This document shows positions 3,262 to 46,951 of a DNA stretch of 50,024 bases, in pieces. Position 1 is the first letter of the stretch. Every line of letters begins with the position of its first letter. Source of the DNA: Stenotrophomonas sp. 278 (GTDB taxonomy: Bacteria; Pseudomonadota; Gammaproteobacteria; Xanthomonadales; Xanthomonadaceae); assembly GCF_003935715.1 (NCBI RefSeq), contig NZ_RHPP01000014.1, positions 1 to 50,024 on the forward strand, in the 5' to 3' direction. The translations under genes and the position numbers were made by a program. The notes below the pieces were generated by a model, which saw nothing but the letters and a program-made list of their open reading frames with translations, ran no database searches and had not been told where the DNA came from.

Positions 3262-3334
3262 TGGGCCGGCCAACGGCCGGCGCTACCGTGTTGAACCGCA
3301 CGCCTCGGTAGCGCCGGCCGTTGGCCGGCCCAGG
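3262..3334. repeat. Inverted pair of SMAG palindromes
   Basis: Two copies of the GCCGGCC/GGCCGGC palindrome face each other, ending in CTAC at 3283-3286 and starting with GTAG at 3308-3311. They form a BIME-like pair between the purB terminator and roxA. Confidence 0.85.
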
Positions 3335-8411: not shown

Positions 8412-9608
8412 ATGGCCACCGAAGTCAAAGCCCCGGTACTGCCCGAATCCGTCGCCGACGGCACCATCGCCACCTGGCACAAGAAAGTCGGCGATGCCGT
8501 CAAGCGCGATGAAAACCTGCTGGATCTGGAAACCGACAAGGTCGTTCTGGAAGTGCCGTCGCCGGTCGATGGCGTGCTGAAGGAAATCAAGTTCGAAGTG
8601 GGTGCCACCGTGACCTCCAGCCAGGTCGTGGCGATCATCGAGGAAGGCGCGGTTGCCGAAGCCCCGGCTCCGGCGGCCGAAGCGCCGAAGGCTGAAGCCC
8701 CGAAGGCCGCTGCTCCGGCTGCTGCTGCCGCTCCGGCTCCGGCCGCCAAGTCGGCCGCTGATGCCCTGCCCCCGGGTGCCCGCTTCACCGCCATCACCGA
8801 AGGCGTGAACCCGGCCGACGTCGACGGCACCGGCCGTCGCGGCGCGGTGACCAAGGAAGACATCGTCAACTTCGCCCGTAACGGCGGTGCCGGCAAGGCC
8901 GGTGGCGCACGTCCGGAAGAACGCGTGCCGATGACCCGCATCCGCAAGCGCATTGCCGAACGCCTGATGGAGTCCAAGAACTCCACCGCCATGCTGACCA
9001 CCTTCAACGAAGTCGACCTGAGCAAGGTGTCGGCCGCGCGCAAGGAACTGCAGGACGAGTTCGTCAAGGCACACGGCATCAAGCTGGGCTTCATGAGCTT
9101 CTTCGTGAAGGCCGCCGCCAACGCGCTGCAGCGCTTCCCGCTGGTCAACGCCTCGATCGATGGTGACGACATCATCTATCACGGCTACGCCGACGTCTCG
9201 ATCGCCGTGTCCACCGAAAAGGGTCTGGTGACCCCGGTGCTGCGCAACGTCGAGCGCATGTCCTTCGCCGACATCGAAAAGACCATTGCCGAGTACGCCA
9301 AGAAGGCGCGCGACGGCAAGCTGGGCCTGGACGAACTGCAGGGCGGCACCTTCACCGTGACCAACGGCGGCACCTTCGGTTCGCTGCTGTCCACCCCGAT
9401 CATCAACCCGCCGCAGAGCGCCATCCTGGGCATGCACGCCATCAAGGAGCGTCCGATCGCCCAGAACGGCCAGGTCGTGATCGCGCCGATGATGTACCTG
9501 GCGCTGTCCTACGACCACCGCATCATCGACGGCAAGGACTCGGTGCAGTTCCTGGTGGACATCAAGAACCAGCTGGAAAACCCGGGCCGCATGCTGTTCG
9601 GCCTGTAA
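8412..9608 (+). CDS. sucB: Dihydrolipoyllysine succinyltransferase SucB (E2)
   Basis: The 398-residue E2 core of the 2-oxoglutarate dehydrogenase complex transfers succinyl to CoA. One N-terminal lipoyl domain carries the lipoylated lysine in [10 protein letters not shown] (K43). It is followed by an Ala/Pro/Glu-rich swinging linker at about 80-115 and a peripheral-subunit-binding domain around 118-150 ([13 protein letters not shown] to TKEDIVNF). The C-terminal catalytic acyltransferase domain has the active-site motif SYDHRIIDG with H369 and D373. AGGAAG precedes the ATG. It lies between the E1 and E3 genes in the same operon. A stem-loop without a T-run separates it from lpd. Confidence 0.97.
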
Positions 9609-11548: not shown

Positions 11549-11620
11549 GTAGCGCCGGCCGTTGGCCGGCCCTCATGAACCCATCCGGATGCGCGGGGGC
11601 CGGCCAACGGCCGGCGCTAC
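11549..11620. repeat. Inverted SMAG pair downstream of dnaB
   Basis: GTAG-GCCGGCC-gtt-GGCCGGC (11549-11572) faces its mirror copy (11599-11620, ending CTAC). The pair begins 20 bp past the dnaB stop codon, where no classical terminator is visible. Confidence 0.85.
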
Positions 11621-13775: not shown

Positions 13776-13845
13776 GTAGAGCCCCGCCCTGCGTGGCTGC
13801 GTGAACGTGTCAGGCACCCCGAAGCCACGCAGGGCGTGGCTCTAC
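13776..13845. repeat. SMAG pair (GCCACGC subtype) at the asnB 3' end
   Basis: A degenerate GTAG unit (from 13776) faces a good one, AGCCACGC agg GCGTGGCT ending in CTAC (13823-13845). The TAG of the second element, read on the minus strand, is the asnB stop codon. Confidence 0.8.
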
Positions 13846-29306: not shown

Positions 29307-29374
29307 GTAGAGCCACGCCCTGCGTGGCTGCGACCCCGTCTGACACCTCGCAGCCACGCAGGGCGTGGCTCTAC
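29307..29374. repeat. Inverted SMAG pair (GCCACGC subtype)
   Basis: GTAGAGCCACGC cct GCGTGGCT faces AGCCACGC agg GCGTGGCTCTAC. It sits between the convergent fpr and glutathione peroxidase genes, where no classical terminator is visible. Confidence 0.9.
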
Positions 29375-40647: not shown

Positions 40648-40713
40648 GTAGAGCCGGGCTTGCCCGGCGGCCCGCCGACCCCGCCGAAAGCAGCCGGGCA
40701 AGCCCGGCTCTAC
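40648..40713. repeat. Inverted SMAG pair (GCCGGGC subtype)
   Basis: GTAGAGCCGGGC tt GCCCGGC faces AGCCGGGC aa GCCCGGCTCTAC. It starts at once after the EEP-like gene's TAA, between two convergent genes. Confidence 0.9.
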
Positions 40714-41607: not shown

Positions 41608-42060
41608 ATGCGCAAGCCACTCCTGCTGCTGGTCGCGATCGTGCTGCTGATCGGCGGCCTGTTCGCCATCAAGGAATCCCAGCGTCCGCCGCCGCCACAG
41701 TTCGCGCCATCACTGACCGGTGAAGCAGCGCCGCCCGACACTGGCTCGCCTGCGCGCGCCAATGACCCGCTTCCGCCGTTCCTGCCCCCGGAAGCGCGCC
41801 GGACCATCGCCCTTATCCAGCGCGGCGGCCCCTATCCGCACCGCCAGGACGGCAGCGTGTTCGGCAACCGCGAGCAGCGCCTGCCCGAACGACCGCGTGG
41901 CTATTACCGTGAATTCACCGTGGAAACGCCCGGGGCTCCCAATCGCGGCGCGCGCCGCATCGTGACCGGCGGCAACCCACCCACCGGCTGGTTCTACACC
42001 GATGACCACTATGAAACCTTCCGCAGTTTTGACGTCCCCCCGGCCGGGAGCTGGCAATGA
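41608..42060 (+). CDS. Exported barnase/RNase Sa-type ribonuclease
   Basis: The 150-residue protein has an N-terminal hydrophobic export or anchor segment (LLLLVAIVLLIGGLFAI) and a proline-rich linker. The mature domain fits microbial ribonucleases: catalytic Glu in YREFTVETP, Arg in RGARRIVTGG and the general-acid His in TDDHYETFRSF. DGSVFGNREQRLP is the matching substrate loop. Microbial N1/T1 RNases are toxic to the producer unless exported or inhibited; the inhibitor gene overlaps it by 4 nt. The ATG at 41608 gives the shortest sensible export signal. Confidence 0.9.
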   Translation: MRKPLLLLVAIVLLIGGLFAIKESQRPPPPQFAPSLTGEAAPPDTGSPARANDPLPPFLPPEARRTIALIQRGGPYPHRQDGSVFGNREQRLPERPRGYYREFTVETPGAPNRGARRIVTGGNPPTGWFYTDDHYETFRSFDVPPAGSWQ

Positions 42061-42488
42061 CTCATGATCCGTTCGACCTGGGGTTGCATGACCTCAACAA
42101 TGCTGGCGTGTACGCCATTGGCAACGACGATGTCGGCCCGCTGTCGGCGGCGATGCGTGACGCCGGGCTGAAAGTGCTGCGCGTGGACCTCGACGGATGT
42201 GCCGACAAACGCACCCTGCTCGCCCGCCTCGCCGCACAGCTGGATTTTCCGCAGGGAACGGGCGGCAACTGGGATGCGTTGTCGGACAACCTGCGTGACC
42301 TGGCCTGGCAGAAATCGCCGGGCGGCTATGCGTTGTTTCTGAGCGACGCCGATGGCCTGCGCGATGCCGGTGCGGCCGAATTCGAGACACTGCTGGATGT
42401 GCTGGATGAAGCCAGCCAGAGCTGGGCGCAGCAGGACGTGCCGTTCTGGGCGTTCGTGGCGTTGAAGGACGTGCCCGCGGCGGAATGA
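42057..42488 (+). CDS. Barstar-family ribonuclease inhibitor
   Basis: The 143-residue cytosolic protein is a predicted inhibitor of the upstream RNase. The barstar core is VDLDGCADKRTLLARLAAQL followed by GGNWDALSDNLRDL, where the acidic helix that fills a barnase active site is expected. An N-terminal extension of about 40 residues sits ahead of the core. Its ATG overlaps the RNase stop (ATGA), which would couple synthesis of toxin and inhibitor. It converges with the transmembrane repetitive protein gene. Confidence 0.9.
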   Translation: MTHDPFDLGLHDLNNAGVYAIGNDDVGPLSAAMRDAGLKVLRVDLDGCADKRTLLARLAAQLDFPQGTGGNWDALSDNLRDLAWQKSPGGYALFLSDADGLRDAGAAEFETLLDVLDEASQSWAQQDVPFWAFVALKDVPAAE

Positions 42489-42494
42489 TTCCGC

Positions 42495-42519
42495 GCCACG
42501 ACCAACGGTCGTGGCCTAC
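42495..42519. repeat. SMAG palindrome giving a stop codon
   Basis: GCCACGACC aac GGTCGTGGC ends in CTAC. Its minus-strand TAG (42516-42518) is the stop codon of the transmembrane repetitive protein gene. Confidence 0.85.
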
Positions 42520-44546
42520 CGGCTTCCGTTGTCTTCCTGGAACTCTTTCTTGAACGGCACATCCGGCGGTGGCCGCGCCACCGCTGGCTGATCCTGCATG
42601 TTCGGGTCGGTCAAGCCGCAGCCGCCACCGAACTGCAGGACTGAAATCACGCAGGAAATCTTCGAGTTGGTGCCGGGAATCGGGATCTCCATGGTCTGGA
42701 TGCCCCGGCGCACCCACTCGGCCAGCAACGACTCGTTCGGGGCCCAGTACTTGTCGAACGAGGTCGGCGTGTAATCATATGGCGGGCGCTTGAGCCAGGT
42801 GCCGGACTGGGCGATGCGCTCGCGGCTCCAACCATCGTTCGCGCCGCCGGGAGCGCCACGTTCGCTGTTGCCGCTGCCGTCCTGGTTCGGCACGCGCACG
42901 CTGCCGTCGGCGTTGAACAGCCCATCGCCGGTGCGACCGGTGCCCTGGTTGGCCTGAGCGGTGCTGCCCGGAGCGTTGCGTGAGGCTGCGCCCCAGTCGT
43001 CGCCGCGGGCGGGTGTGGACCAGTCGCCTGGATTGGGAGCCGGGCGTGCGGCGGGGGTGGCCGAAGGCGACGGGGTCGCTGATGCGGCGCTGCGCGCGGG
43101 CGACTGCGACGATGCTGCGGGGGACGTGGACGTAGAGCCGGGCTCTGCCCGGCTGGCCGACGGCGACGGCGCGGACGACAGCGGGGCAGAGCCCCGCTCT
43201 ACAACAGCGGGTGTCGGTGTCGTTGAAGACGCGGATGCGGGTGTCGTCGAAGACGCCGGTGTCGGGGGTGTCGGGGTTGCCGACGGTGCCGGCGTCGCCG
43301 CCTGCACCGGACGCGGCGGCGCGTTGGGAACGGTGCGCTCGCGCACCGCCACCTCGGGACTGCGGGTCGGCGGACGCACCGTAACCTCGCGCGACGGCAA
43401 CTGCGGAATGGTCACATCCACTACCGGCACCGAAGTCACTTCGCGCTCCCGCACCTGTACGTCGCGTTGCGGCAGGGTCACTTCCACGCGCGGCATCGGA
43501 ACGGGAACTGCGGGTGTCGGTGCGGTCACCACGGTGACTTCGCGCTCGCGCACGGTGATCTCTCGCGGACGCAGCTGCGGCTCGATGGGGCGCAGCTGCG
43601 GCGTGGTCGGGGTGACCTGCGGAGCTTCCACGGTTGTGACCGTGCGTTCGCGGACGGTCACTGTCGGGACGTCGCGCGGCACCACCCGCACCTCGGTGCG
43701 CGGCACGGTCGTCGGCGGCACCACGAAGTCGGTGGTGGCTTCGGCCACGTCGGTGGCCTGGATCGGCTGCTCCACGACCGGCACCGGCGTGGGCGGCGTC
43801 GCTTGCGGTTCGGGTGGCGGCGCGGCCGCGACCGGGGTTGGCGGCACGACTTCGGCTGGGACCGGCGTCGGTGGCGATGGTTCGCTCGCCGTAGTAGAGC
43901 CGGGCTCTGCCCGGCTGGCCGTTGGCGGTGTGTCGGCGGGCTGGGGTTGGCTGGCTTCGTTCAGCGGGGCAGAGCCCCGCTCTACATTCGCGCGGGCAGA
44001 CACCGCGTTGGCCGGGCGCGCAGCGACCGCAGCGTTCGGTTGCGCCGCCCCAGCGTTGCTCGGCTGTGCTGCCTCCGCATCGCCAGGTTGCCCGCCACCG
44101 CCATCCTCGGCCGGCGTGCCCTGCCCAATGAAGTCCACCCGCATGCGCCCGCCGTCACCGCCCTGCTCCGGCTCGACCGGCGGACGGATCACTGCCACCC
44201 ACACCAGCAGCAGCGCGAACATCACATGCAACAACACGCTGATCGCCGCGGATGTCCAGCGCATCCAGCGCTGGTCGCGCGGGGCCGGATCCCAGGTCTG
44301 CCACGCCAGACGGCGCAGGGCCTGCGGGAAGCTCAACGCGGGCAAGCGCCCGGGCGACCCCGGCAGCGGACGCTGCATCAGCTGGGCAACCATCTCGGTG
44401 GCCCTTACTGAGTAAGGCACAGGCTTCAGCGCGCGCAACCATAGACCCCAGCCGTACGGCAGGCCGGTGGTTTTTTCCAGAATGCGCTTGTCCGGCTGCC
44501 GTGACAGCAGCCAAGCAAGGATGTCGTCAGCCCGGCGCAGAGGCAC
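42516..44546 (-). CDS. Proline-rich transmembrane repetitive protein
   Basis: The 676-residue protein has a cytosolic N-terminus (about 95 residues), one transmembrane helix (99-120, SVLLHVMFALLLVWVAVI), and a very long Pro/Ala/Thr/Ser-rich periplasmic span to about 575. A small C-terminal domain has two cysteines (SKISCV, GGGCGL). The architecture is like TonB-type proteins. Recurrent motifs VREREV/VRERTV between residues 280 and 420 look like repeated short strands. Two stretches (188-218 and 449-472) are direct translations of SMAG palindrome pairs lying in frame. It starts 9 nt after nfuA. Annotated in xanthomonads as transmembrane repetitive protein; function unknown. Confidence 0.8.
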   Translation of the reverse strand: MPLRRADDILAWLLSRQPDKRILEKTTGLPYGWGLWLRALKPVPYSVRATEMVAQLMQRPLPGSPGRLPALSFPQALRRLAWQTWDPAPRDQRWMRWTSAAISVLLHVMFALLLVWVAVIRPPVEPEQGGDGGRMRVDFIGQGTPAEDGGGGQPGDAEAAQPSNAGAAQPNAAVAARPANAVSARANVERGSAPLNEASQPQPADTPPTASRAEPGSTTASEPSPPTPVPAEVVPPTPVAAAPPPEPQATPPTPVPVVEQPIQATDVAEATTDFVVPPTTVPRTEVRVVPRDVPTVTVRERTVTTVEAPQVTPTTPQLRPIEPQLRPREITVREREVTVVTAPTPAVPVPMPRVEVTLPQRDVQVREREVTSVPVVDVTIPQLPSREVTVRPPTRSPEVAVRERTVPNAPPRPVQAATPAPSATPTPPTPASSTTPASASSTTPTPAVVERGSAPLSSAPSPSASRAEPGSTSTSPAASSQSPARSAASATPSPSATPAARPAPNPGDWSTPARGDDWGAASRNAPGSTAQANQGTGRTGDGLFNADGSVRVPNQDGSGNSERGAPGGANDGWSRERIAQSGTWLKRPPYDYTPTSFDKYWAPNESLLAEWVRRGIQTMEIPIPGTNSKISCVISVLQFGGGCGLTDPNMQDQPAVARPPPDVPFKKEFQEDNGSR
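43132..43202. repeat. SMAG pair inside a coding sequence, copy 1
   Basis: GTAG-led AGCCGGGC tct GCCCGGCT faces AGCGGGGC aga GCCCCGCTCTAC. On the minus strand both arms are read in frame as VERGSAPL and SRAEPGST (residues 449-472 of the host protein). Confidence 0.92.
43894..43985. repeat. SMAG pair inside a coding sequence, copy 2
   Basis: The same two arms appear as in copy 1 with a longer spacer. It is read in frame as VERGSAPL and SRAEPGST (residues 188-218). The identical arms but different spacer suggest independent drift or insertion. Confidence 0.92.
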
Positions 44547-44555
44547 GCAGCGGAA

Positions 44556-45155
44556 TCAGGCTGCCGTACCGCGGGGAATATACGGGGCATGACCGCTGTC
44601 GTGGTCGGTCGCGTCACGCACGGCGGTGATGCCGGGCACGCGGCCCATCAGCGTTTTCTCAATGCCCTGCTTCAAGGTGACATCGGCCATGCCACAGCCC
44701 TGGCAGCCGCCGCCGAAGCGCAGCAGCACCACGCCATCGGCCGAGACTTCCTGCACGGCCACGCGGCCGCCATGCGAGGCCAGCTGTGGGTTGACCTCGT
44801 TTTCCACCACCCAGTGGACGCGTTCGACCAGCGAGGCCGATTCAGCGGGGGCTTCACCCTTGATCTTCGGGGCCTTGATGGTCAGCTGCTGACTGCCGGC
44901 GGCGTTGCTGACGAAGTCGATCTCGGCTCCGTCCAGCCAGCCGACGCTGTCGGAGGCCACGTAGAGCGTGAATCCGTCGCAGTCCACGGCCCATTCGTCG
45001 CCAAGCAGGTCGGTCGGTTCGGCGAACTCCAGGCGCGCGTCGGCGCGCGGGGTGCCCGCGTCAACGGCACTCAGGCGCACGCCCATTCCGGGCACGGCTT
45101 CGCGCTCGATGAGTTTGCGGAAATAGGTCTGGGCAGTGTCAGAGATCTGGATCAT
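44556..45155 (-). CDS. nfuA: Fe-S biogenesis protein NfuA
   Basis: The 199-residue carrier delivers 4Fe-4S clusters to apoproteins. An A-type-like N-terminal domain that lacks the usual cysteines ([16 protein letters not shown]) is fused to a C-terminal Nfu domain with the cluster motif [10 protein letters not shown] (C151, C154), as in E. coli NfuA (191 residues). A TAGAAT box lies only 6 nt upstream of the ATG and no Shine-Dalgarno is visible, so the transcript may be leaderless. The class I fumarase of this window is a plausible client (inference). The next gene starts 9 nt later. Confidence 0.95.
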
Positions 45156-45161
45156 CCGGCT

Positions 45162-45167
45162 ATTCTA
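45162..45167 (-). promoter_or_regulatory. Candidate nfuA -10 box TAGAAT
   Basis: TAGAAT read leftward ends 6 nt before the nfuA ATG, which would place the start of transcription at the ATG itself. Confidence 0.4.
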
Positions 45168-45197
45168 GCGGCTTACATGTTATGCGCTCATTCGGTT

Positions 45198-45203
45198 TAT
45201 ACA
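45198..45203 (+). promoter_or_regulatory. Candidate phhB -10 box TATACA
   Basis: TATACA lies 44 bp before the phhB ATG. TTACAT at 45173-45178 is a weak -35 with 19-bp spacing. Confidence 0.35.
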
Positions 45204-45246
45204 CTGTCCGGCGCATTGTTCAGGCATACAGATGGTGGAGGATTCC

Positions 45247-45588
45247 ATGACCGACCTGATTCCCCTGGCCCAGGCCCATTGCGTGCCCCGTCGGGGCAGC
45301 GACCACAAGCTGGGTCAGGCCCGCATTGCCGAGCTGCTGCCGCAGGTTCCGGGCTGGGAGCTGGCCGAACAGGGCCAGGCCCTGACCCGTACGTTTACGT
45401 TCAAGGACTACTACCGGACCATGGCCTTCGTGAATGCCCTGGCCTGGGTGGCCCACGCCGAGGACCATCACCCCGACCTGGGCGTGCACTACGACCGCGC
45501 GGTGGTGCGCTTTTCCACCCACGATGTGGGCGGATTGAGCGAGAACGACTTCATCTGTGCAGCCAAGGCTTCGGCCCTTACGGAGTAA
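45247..45588 (+). CDS. phhB: Pterin-4a-carbinolamine dehydratase
   Basis: The 113-residue enzyme dehydrates 4a-hydroxytetrahydrobiopterin to recycle the pterin cofactor of phenylalanine hydroxylase. The active-site motif [17 protein letters not shown] is complete, and [11 protein letters not shown] and the closing [14 protein letters not shown] are typical. The N-terminal [11 protein letters not shown] is common in proteobacterial members. GGAGG precedes the ATG at 45247. No phhA is in the window. It is followed after 5 nt by a lipoprotein gene, so the two are probably co-transcribed. Confidence 0.93.
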
Positions 45589-45593
45589 TTCGC

Positions 45594-46010
45594 ATGAAAA
45601 TGGTCCATGCCGCCCTGTCGGGCGTTTCGTTGTTGGTGCTGACCGCGTGCTCGGGCTCCTCGGAGCCGGCGGCTCCGGTGGCCGCCCCGACCGAAGTGGC
45701 CGCGGTCAAGACTCCGCCGCCGCAGTACCCCATCGAGCTGGCCTGCCAGAACATCGGCGGAACCAGCACCCTGAAGGTGGTGATCGGCCCTGACGGTAAA
45801 CCAAGCGAAGTGACGCTGGCCACCAGCAGTGGCAACAGCGCGCTGGACGAGCAGGCGCGCACCGCGGTGCAGGGCTGGCAGTTCAAGGCCGCGACCCGGG
45901 CGGGCCAGCCGGTGTCGAGCAGGATCCAGGTACCGGTGACGTTCAATCCGCCGCAGCCCAAGCCGGATGAGTGCTTTGCCATTGAGGAACGGCTGCGTCG
46001 CGGCGGTTGA
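45594..46010 (+). CDS. Lipoprotein with a TonB C-terminal-like domain
   Basis: The 138-residue protein has a lipoprotein signal (LVLTAC) and a short Ala/Pro linker. The C-terminal domain follows the TonB-C pattern: TPPPQYPIELACQNIGGTSTLKVVIGPDG, then ALDEQARTAVQGWQFKAAT and a final IQVPVTF. Normal TonB needs an inner-membrane helix that meets ExbB/ExbD; here a lipid anchor replaces it, so classical energy transduction is unlikely. GGAG lies upstream of the ATG. The two extra cysteines (ELAC, DEC) could form a disulfide. Confidence 0.82.
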   Translation: MKMVHAALSGVSLLVLTACSGSSEPAAPVAAPTEVAAVKTPPPQYPIELACQNIGGTSTLKVVIGPDGKPSEVTLATSSGNSALDEQARTAVQGWQFKAATRAGQPVSSRIQVPVTFNPPQPKPDECFAIEERLRRGG

Positions 46011-46048
46011 TTGGACACGTTGACAGTCCGGACTGATCGGCACCGCAC

Positions 46049-46070
46049 AGCCGGGCAAGCCCGGCTCTAC
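46049..46070. repeat. SMAG palindrome (GCCGGGC subtype)
   Basis: AGCCGGGC aa GCCCGGCTCTAC is a single unit just upstream of zupT. Confidence 0.85.
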
Positions 46071-46086
46071 AAGGACGCTTCGCTGC

Positions 46087-46896
46087 ATGCCTGATTTTTC
46101 CGCTGAGAATGTAATCACGGCCCTGCTGGTCACCCTCGCCGCTGGTCTGGCCACCGGATTGGGCAGCCTGATGGTGCTGTTCTCGCGCCGCCCCAACCCC
46201 CGCCTGCTGGCGTTCGGGCTGGCCTTCGCCGGCGGCGCGATGGTGTTCGTGTCGCTGACCGAGATCCTCAACAAGGCGATTGATTCGTTCACCCAGGCCT
46301 ATGACGCGCGGCTGGGCTTCGCCTATGGCACGGCGGCATTCCTGGGCGGCGTGCTGCTGATCGTGCTGATCGACCACCTGATCCCCAACCCGCACGACAG
46401 CCTGGACAAGCAGGACCCGATGTACCGCGACAACAACCGCGCCTACATCAAGCGCGTGGGTCTGTTGACGGCCGTGGCGATCACCGCGCACAACTTCCCG
46501 GAAGGGCTGGCCACCTTCTTCGCCACGCTGGAAAGCCCCTCGGTGGGCATGCCGCTGGCGTTCGCGATTGCGATCCACAACATTCCCGAAGGCATCGCGA
46601 TTGCGGTGCCGGTGTACTTCGCCACGCAGAACAAGGGGTACGCCTTCCTGGCCAGCCTGGCCTCGGGCCTGGCCGAGCCGATCGGCGCGATCATCGGCTA
46701 TGCGGTGCTTTCGAACGTGCTGACCCACGCCACCTTCGGCTGGGTGTTCGGTCTGATTTCCGGGGTGATGGTGTTCCTGGCCCTGGACGAACTGCTGCCG
46801 GCAGCCAAGCGCTACGCCAAGGGTCACGAAACCGTCTACGGTCTGGTGGCCGGCATGGGCAGCCTGGCGATCAGCCTGGTGTTGTTCAAGTGGTGA
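46087..46896 (+). CDS. zupT: ZIP-family zinc transporter ZupT
   Basis: The 269-residue inner-membrane importer for Zn(II) and related metals has about eight helices. Metal-binding motifs are HNFPEG (H135, E139) and HNIPEG (H164, E168). The histidine/aspartate loop PNPHDSLDKQDP lies between helices, as in ZupT. The start ATG at 46087 has no strong Shine-Dalgarno, and a SMAG unit is immediately upstream. It could also carry Fe(II) or Mn(II). No Zur-like site is evident by eye. Confidence 0.94.
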   Translation: MPDFSAENVITALLVTLAAGLATGLGSLMVLFSRRPNPRLLAFGLAFAGGAMVFVSLTEILNKAIDSFTQAYDARLGFAYGTAAFLGGVLLIVLIDHLIPNPHDSLDKQDPMYRDNNRAYIKRVGLLTAVAITAHNFPEGLATFFATLESPSVGMPLAFAIAIHNIPEGIAIAVPVYFATQNKGYAFLASLASGLAEPIGAIIGYAVLSNVLTHATFGWVFGLISGVMVFLALDELLPAAKRYAKGHETVYGLVAGMGSLAISLVLFKW

Positions 46897-46929
46897 TTCG
46901 CCGCCATGTGATTGCACACGCTGCGTGAC

Positions 46930-46951
46930 GCCGGGCGACGCCCGGCTCTAC
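46930..46951. repeat. SMAG palindrome between zupT and rluC
   Basis: GCCGGGC gac GCCCGGCTCTAC is one unit in the 74-bp gap between convergent genes. Confidence 0.8.

What the first reader, a model, noticed from the sequence alone, without database searches (positions are those of the whole stretch)
43132..43985. Two SMAG palindrome pairs translated inside one gene
The transmembrane repetitive protein contains two SMAG pairs in the same frame, each read as VERGSAPL then SRAEPGST. Neither introduces a stop because the GTAG is read as GTA-G on that strand. REP-type elements are normally intergenic. They sit in a Pro/Ala-rich, probably disordered span, so insertion may have been tolerated or even used to lengthen the protein. 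This is a candidate for protein growth by REP capture.
Basis: partly seen in the sequence, partly recalled or inferred. Interest (0 to 1): 0.75.

Follow-up and report, generated by a model that had tools for sequence, protein, structure and literature searches.

The report
Mobile palindromes translated inside a gene
Two pairs of a short mobile DNA palindrome, normally found between genes, sit in frame inside a bacterial membrane-protein gene and lengthen its floppy linkers; relatives without them indicate that they were inserted, a well-documented example of a phenomenon already known in bacteria.

Summary
The minus-strand ORF 42516-44546 (676 aa) holds two inverted SMAG (GTAG-REP) pairs, 43132-43202 (71 bp) and 43894-43985 (92 bp). 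Each reads VERGSAPL...SRAEPGST with no stop. Chance is excluded: the same 24-mers are a genome-wide repeat, and of 85 complete orthologues in the genus only 3, one fully supported clade, carry them. The five sister species have shorter linkers there, although four of the five hold this repeat elsewhere. One carrier, G052, lacks exactly one arm (39 bp, in frame). So the pairs were inserted on one stem and lengthened two low-confidence, probably disordered linkers. The genome has at least two more supported in-frame cases (HrpA, an ABC-F ATPase) and one likely case. New here: the 5' arms are 24/24 identical in three species at both sites, although 42% of comparable codons vary; arms elsewhere in the window that are shared with G052 are equally static, so the constraint or homogenisation probably acts on DNA, not on the peptide. 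In-frame REPs in genes, including S. maltophilia, are already in print (PMC3733652; Rickettsia RPEs), with the flexible-linker argument. New member of a known kind; translation itself is not shown.

The parts
42516..44546 (-). Host gene, 676 aa, GTG start 9 bases after the stop of an NfuA-like gene; one confidently predicted long helix (residues 90-120, presumed TM), Pro/Ala/Val-rich repetitive middle, conserved C-terminal region
   Evidence: no Pfam or NCBIfam match
43962..43985 (-). Pair A, 5' arm (CGGGGC-type SMAG), read VERGSAPL, residues 188-195
43918..43961 (-). Pair A spacer, 44 nt (23 nt in the G077 orthologue)
43894..43917 (-). Pair A, 3' arm (CCGGGC-type SMAG, inverted), read SRAEPGST, residues 211-218; absent in G052, 2 mismatches in G077
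43179..43202 (-). Pair B, 5' arm (CGGGGC-type SMAG), read VERGSAPL, residues 449-456
43156..43178 (-). Pair B spacer, 23 nt (35 nt in G077)
43132..43155 (-). Pair B, 3' arm (CCGGGC-type SMAG, inverted), read SRAEPGST, residues 465-472
42496..42519 (-). A third GTAG palindrome of another type (GTAGGCCACGACCGTTGGTCGTGG); its GTAG supplies the TAG stop codon of the host gene; the same element stands in G052
44556..45155 (-). Upstream neighbour, NifU-domain protein (NfuA-like), probably co-transcribed (inferred from the 9-base gap)
   Evidence: Pfam PF01106, E 6.4e-20

Best explanation
SMAG pairs (two GTAG-REP palindromes, tail to tail, the REPIN-like arrangement) were inserted in frame into two low-complexity linkers of a membrane-anchored protein in the common ancestor of three Stenotrophomonas species, and have been translated and tolerated since. 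SHOWN: repeat identity, presence in one clade only, longer linkers in carriers, an open frame in three diverged species, and absence of one arm in one carrier. INFERRED: that this absence is a loss; mobilisation by a RAYT transposase; the disorder of the linkers as the reason for tolerance; and a shared source for the two pairs, probably one capture followed by intragenic copying or two insertions of the same parent pair. A forward arm is stop-free in two of three frames and an inverted arm in all three, so many in-frame insertions survive if the linker does not matter. The DNA of the arms, not their peptide, then stays fixed, as it does for SMAG arms elsewhere in the window.
For: 3 of 85 complete orthologues carry arms. 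One clade, SH-aLRT 100, 0 of 500 shuffles as low (quick method). Gaps in the five sisters. Linker A is 121/107/101 residues in carriers against at most 88 in 65 measured non-carriers; linker B is 102/88/83 against a median of 57 in 64, next-highest values 89 and 65. Arm A3' absent from G052 by a 13-residue in-frame gap. The repeat is abundant in this genome and absent from reversed controls. Parallel cases: HrpA, where the linker is 33 residues in G000 and G052, which have the element, and 21-26 in 10 of 10 other species; an ABC-F gene with the element in 2 of 12 species. Shared source of the pairs: both are heterotypic with the same polarity, while 9 of 10 other pairs of this subtype in the fetched stretches are homotypic; spacers G077-A and G000-B match 15/23, reached by 290 of 10,591 linker windows. 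All four arms lie in segments with pLDDT under 50.
Against: The empty sites are not base-precise, so the insertion unit and any target duplication cannot be read. In the ABC-F gene the carriers are not clean gaps: G000 is only about 2 residues longer there than most others. No RAYT flanked by this SMAG subtype was found: 3 Y1_Tnp matches in G000, two flanked by other GTAG types. Translation is inferred from the open frame and from conserved regions on both sides, not observed. Low pLDDT may partly reflect the alignment of only 25 sequences.
Confidence: 0.88

Rival explanations
1. Codon-choice coincidence: a Pro/Ala/Ser-rich linker happened to produce palindromes that resemble SMAG.
For: The linkers are low-complexity and G+C rich, and one unrelated weak GTAG hairpin does occur in a non-carrier gene (G089).
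Against: Four arms matching a pattern that has 76 exact copies in the genome and 0 in reversed controls, using rarer codons: GTA is 11 of 171 Val codons and TCT 15 of 103 TCN codons in the three carrier genes, arms included. None of 82 other complete orthologues was judged to have an arm.
Confidence: 0.01
2. The arms are kept for a function of the mRNA or DNA hairpin (translation pausing, RNase protection, protein binding), not merely tolerated.
For: Each pair folds to about -54 (B) and -50 kcal/mol (A) as RNA, z -7.2 and -6.2 against shuffles. 5' arms are 24/24 identical in three species at two sites; amino-acid-matched resampling gives p about 1.5e-4 for 0 of 16 variable codons.
Against: One arm is missing in G052 and worn in G077, which removes or weakens the long hairpin. 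Nine arms elsewhere in the window that are visibly shared with G052 are equally static (1 mismatch in 216 sites against 132 in 1736 flank sites; chosen by eye), so nothing specific to this gene is needed. A palindrome pair folds well by construction.
Confidence: 0.12
3. The encoded peptides VERGSAPL and SRAEPGST have a selected function in the protein.
For: The peptide is unchanged in all six 5' arms.
Against: Synonymous sites in the 5' arms are also frozen, which selection on peptide does not explain. Spacers change length freely (44/23 and 23/23/35 nt) and A3' is missing or altered (SQAEPGAT in G077). HrpA reads the same repeat in another frame (AAGQSPAL).
Confidence: 0.04
4. The two pairs are fully independent insertions at two sites (a variant of the best explanation, not exclusive of its other steps).
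For: The flanks of A and B differ outside the arms, and spacer similarity is modest (15/23).
Against: Same unusual heterotypic make-up, same polarity and same phase.
Confidence: 0.4

Closest known systems
SMAG / GTAG-REP elements of Stenotrophomonas (PMC2613905, passages seen; PMC3733652, section 15, part 1 of section 17 and passages seen; Rocco 2010 known only from a reference-list entry)
   Same: GTAG end, short palindrome, single or in pairs with 5-80 bp spacers, many copies; PMC3733652 reports intragenic GTAG REPs, names S. maltophilia tRNA pseudouridine synthase genes, suggests that flexible linkers make insertions neutral, and notes that GTAG ends often supply a TAG stop to flanking ORFs, as at 42516-42519 here.
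   Different: Different host gene, as far as the text seen shows; here the insertion is placed on a tree of 85 orthologues with an arm-less allele, and the arm DNA is shown to be more static than comparable codons.
REPINs (Bertels and Rainey 2011, PMC3116915, passages seen)
   Same: Two REPs inverted around a short spacer.
   Different: The passages seen describe extragenic elements; mobility as a unit was not tested here, and the pairs here are heterotypic.
Rickettsia palindromic elements, RPE (reviewed in PMC2229807, passages seen)
   Same: Palindromic repeats read in frame inside conserved protein genes; guanylate kinase with an insert is translated and active according to that review.
   Different: Longer (105-146 bp in that review) and in a different bacterial class; sequences were not compared here.

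Membership tests
SMAG / GTAG REP | GTAG at one end followed by a short palindrome | tested here: met
SMAG / GTAG REP | High copy number across the genome | tested here: met
   193 pattern matches, 76 exact copies
SMAG / GTAG REP | Extragenic location | tested here: not met
   All four arms lie inside the ORF; PMC3733652 already accepts intragenic members, so this does not exclude membership
SMAG / GTAG REP | Association with a RAYT (Y1 tyrosine transposase) | tested here: inconclusive
   3 PF01797 matches in G000; two have other GTAG types on both sides, the third has one distant element of another type, none has this subtype; draft genome of 337 contigs
REPIN | Two REPs in inverted orientation with a short spacer | tested here: met
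   the commonest spacers of tail-to-tail pairs are 19-20 nt, here 23 and 44
REPIN | Duplicates and moves as a unit | not testable with these tools
   Movement cannot be seen from single genomes
Rickettsia palindromic element | In-frame palindromic insert in a protein gene | tested here: met
Rickettsia palindromic element | RPE sequence itself | not tested
   No RPE sequence was compared; length and host differ (PMC2229807 passages)

The most novel reading that the evidence does not exclude
The REP population writes and holds protein sequence: once inside a gene, SMAG arms are kept identical to the genome-wide DNA consensus across species (by recurrent gene conversion with other copies, or by selection for the DNA hairpin), so that a stretch of protein evolves in concert with a selfish repeat instead of with its own gene.
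Probability: 0.25. Interest if true: 0.68.

Novelty: new member of a known kind. Interest (0 to 1): 0.42.

Why it matters
It gives a tree-supported case of a bacterial protein lengthened by capture of REP pairs, with natural alleles (pair intact, arm missing, arm worn) that make the neutral-linker idea testable. The frozen DNA of the arms inside a fast-diverging gene also makes a testable question of whether REP copies are homogenised across the genome.

Tried and rejected
Tried without result: Pfam and NCBIfam on the host protein, 0 families. A first SMAG pattern with the wrong symmetry gave 0 matches. A codon-usage caller for intragenic elements gave 2 candidates of 147 and missed the finding's own gene, whose linkers score low; it was replaced by ORF length plus GC3 read by eye, followed by ORF listings of four loci (L042 was judged spurious) and family searches of three, so other in-gene elements may have been missed. 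Promoter and terminator scan: 0 sites, and it covers only sigma-70-like consensus. G028, whose gene runs off a contig end at residue 187, was checked as a possible fourth carrier: the retained sequence already resembles that of G057 past the place of pair A and has no arm.

Rejected: chance palindromes; assembly artefact (arms recur in three separately assembled genomes, one of them in 2 contigs); selection on the peptide as the main cause.

Counts and limits: genomes G016, G067 and G070 were not fetched, G021 gave no gene, and G028 and G054 were partial; this leaves 85 of 91. In one search five non-carriers showed weak matches (four of 5 mismatches without GTAG, one unrelated GTAG hairpin, G089), counted as no SMAG. 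In one search only nine elements visibly shared with G052 were measured, chosen by eye; flanks of paired elements overlap, and I labelled them intergenic in the script without a gene map (one search shows that frames of 43 to 554 codons cover them, which at this G+C content does not decide it), so its p-value is indicative only and I write 'outside the host gene'. The linker regexes matched 68 and 67 of 87 genes. One search listed only the first part of 193 places; the census rests on 79 stretches around those plus the window, one listed place (C110) being skipped as non-palindromic. In the ABC-F comparison orthology rests on best DNA match only.

Full report
WHAT IS THERE. The minus-strand ORF 42516-44546 codes for 676 residues and starts 9 bases after an NfuA-like gene (NifU domain). 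It has a confidently predicted helix at residues 90-120, taken as a TM helix, a long low-confidence middle, and a conserved C-terminal part; no Pfam or NCBIfam family matches. The ORF holds two inverted SMAG pairs, 43132-43202 and 43894-43985. On the coding strand both read VERGSAPL - spacer - SRAEPGST. In the three carriers the six 5' arms are in phase 0 and the five 3' arms found are in phase 2. The stop codon of the gene, TAG at 42516-42518, is itself supplied by the GTAG of a third palindrome of another type at 42496-42519.

NOT CHANCE. GTAGAGC(N13)GCTG has 193 matches in the window's genome against 6 for the reversed control. The exact arm pattern has 76 copies here, occurs in 22 of 91 genomes of the genus, and has no reversed-control match in any of the 91.

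INSERTION. The gene has a match in 91 of 91 genomes of the genus. From 88 genomes, 87 genes were extracted, 85 complete; arms are present in 3 of 85: G000 (window), G052, and G077. The G077 stretch is contained letter for letter in L001, Stenotrophomonas sp. PS02289. Of the 34 loci of the independent scan, 33 gave a gene and only L001 carries the peptide. In a tree of the 85 proteins the carriers are one clade, SH-aLRT 100; the sister group G057, G029, G006, G004, G005 has none. Four of these five sisters have 36 to 76 exact copies of the repeat elsewhere, G057 has 0. At both sites the sisters show gaps, and carriers have longer linkers: A 121/107/101 against at most 88 in 65 non-carriers; B 102/88/83 against a median of 57 in 64, with one at 89 and the next at 65. 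The gaps lie in low-complexity sequence that also varies otherwise, so they are not base-precise. G052 lacks arm A3' by a 13-residue (39-base) in-frame gap, while G077 keeps it in worn form, so loss in G052 is the simpler reading.

TWO PAIRS, ONE SOURCE? Both pairs combine a CGGGGC-type 5' arm with a CCGGGC-type 3' arm in the same polarity. In the fetched stretches of this genome, 10 other tail-to-tail pairs of the subtype were found, 9 homotypic and 1 heterotypic (one of the 10, in L185, overlaps another). Spacers G077-A and G000-B are both 23 nt with 15 identical; 290 of 10,591 linker windows do as well. This favours one capture plus copying, or one parent pair, but does not prove it.

DNA, NOT PEPTIDE, IS HELD. 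Of 481 codons with the same residue in the three carriers outside the arms (Met and Trp left out), 202 vary (42%); of the 16 codons of the two 5' arms, none. Amino-acid-matched resampling gives about 1.5e-4; codons are treated as independent, so this is approximate. The 3' arms are less static: of six expected, one is missing, one has 2 mismatches, one has 1, three are exact. Elsewhere in the window, nine GTAG arms visibly shared with G052 show 1 mismatch in 216 sites against 132 in 1736 flank sites (chosen by eye, of several GTAG types, and not checked against a gene map). In the ABC-F gene too, the printed arm is the same in G000 and G077; in HrpA, G000 differs from G052 by one base. Thus in-gene arms behave like arms elsewhere. 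Homogenisation among copies, or constraint on the DNA or RNA hairpin, would both do this; I cannot separate them. By my reading of the printed alignments, 3 of 10 multi-element GTAG groups outside the host gene are kept in G052 (11172, 22720, 37368); five are replaced or changed and two (24374, 28282) were not aligned. So the repeat set turns over quickly between these two genomes.

NOT ALONE. Among 147 distinct GTAGAGC-type elements in the fetched stretches and the window, at least 7 lie in frame inside genes: the four here, one in HrpA, one in an ABC-F ATPase and one in an XVIPCD (type IV effector domain) protein. In HrpA the linker is 33 residues in G000 and G052, which have the element, and 21-26 in 10 of 10 other species. 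In the ABC-F gene the element is seen in G000 and G077 and not in the other 10 of 12, G052 included; here G000 is only about 2 residues longer than most, so it looks more like a replacement than a clean insertion. The XVIPCD case rests on a long ORF and a downstream domain only; no orthologues were compared. The ABC-F protein is below the curated cut-off of each of the 25 NCBIfam models shown of 190, so no resistance role is claimed.

MECHANISM. Shown: insertion by descent, open frame, an arm-less allele. Inferred: movement by RAYT. G000 has three Y1_Tnp genes, two with other GTAG types on both sides, none with this subtype. Inferred: tolerance by disorder (all four arms in segments with pLDDT under 50, from a 25-sequence alignment). 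As RNA, the pairs can form long hairpins of about -54 (B) and -50 kcal/mol (A); the effect on translation is unknown. Start-to-start spacings of the direct repeats are 762 and 783 bases, both multiples of three, so recombination between the pairs would delete or duplicate the middle of the protein in frame; none of the three carriers shows it.

KNOWN OR NEW. PMC3733652 (section 15, part 1 of 2 of section 17, and passages) reports GTAG REPs inside genes in several species including S. maltophilia, says that dimeric or grouped inserts encode 20-30 residues, and suggests neutrality in flexible linkers. Rickettsia RPEs are the classic precedent (PMC2229807, passages). Searches for this gene's name and peptides in the library gave nothing, but the supplement listing intragenic REPs was not open to me. 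I therefore file it as a new member of a known kind.

Noticed in passing
L178 (G000:C111, element at 91516-91539): A single SMAG lies in frame in the HrpA helicase gene, read AAGQSPAL; the linker is 33 residues in G000 and G052 and 21-26 in 10 of 10 other species.
   Followed up: yes
L038 (G000:C7, element at 8426-8449): A SMAG arm lies in frame in the second ATPase domain of an ABC-F protein, read GSGAEPRST, in G000 and G077 but not in G052, which is at odds with the tree of the main gene.
   Followed up: partly
L062 (G000:C45, element at 8527-8550): A SMAG read VEPGSARL lies in a Gln/Pro-rich stretch of an 853-aa ORF with a C-terminal XVIPCD type IV effector domain.
   Followed up: partly
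window 42496-42519: The GTAG end of a third palindrome, of another type, supplies the TAG stop codon of the same host gene, and the element is unchanged in G052.
   Followed up: partly
window 42526-46947: Window and G052 are 89-96% identical in the other ten aligned blocks over 300 bases but 86% here; the stretch may have been exchanged with another lineage or evolve faster.
   Followed up: no
window 3263-3331, 11549-11620, 13776-13845, 29307-29374, 40648-40713: At these places outside the host gene G052 has different GTAG-type palindromes or other sequence instead of the window's pair, as if one repeat type had replaced another.
   Followed up: partly
window 42057-42488: A barstar-domain protein (PF01337) is encoded convergently, next to the 3' end of the host gene.
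   Followed up: no
G030, G056: These two genomes hold 191 and 127 exact copies of this SMAG subtype, the highest counts of the 91, yet none in this gene.
   Followed up: no
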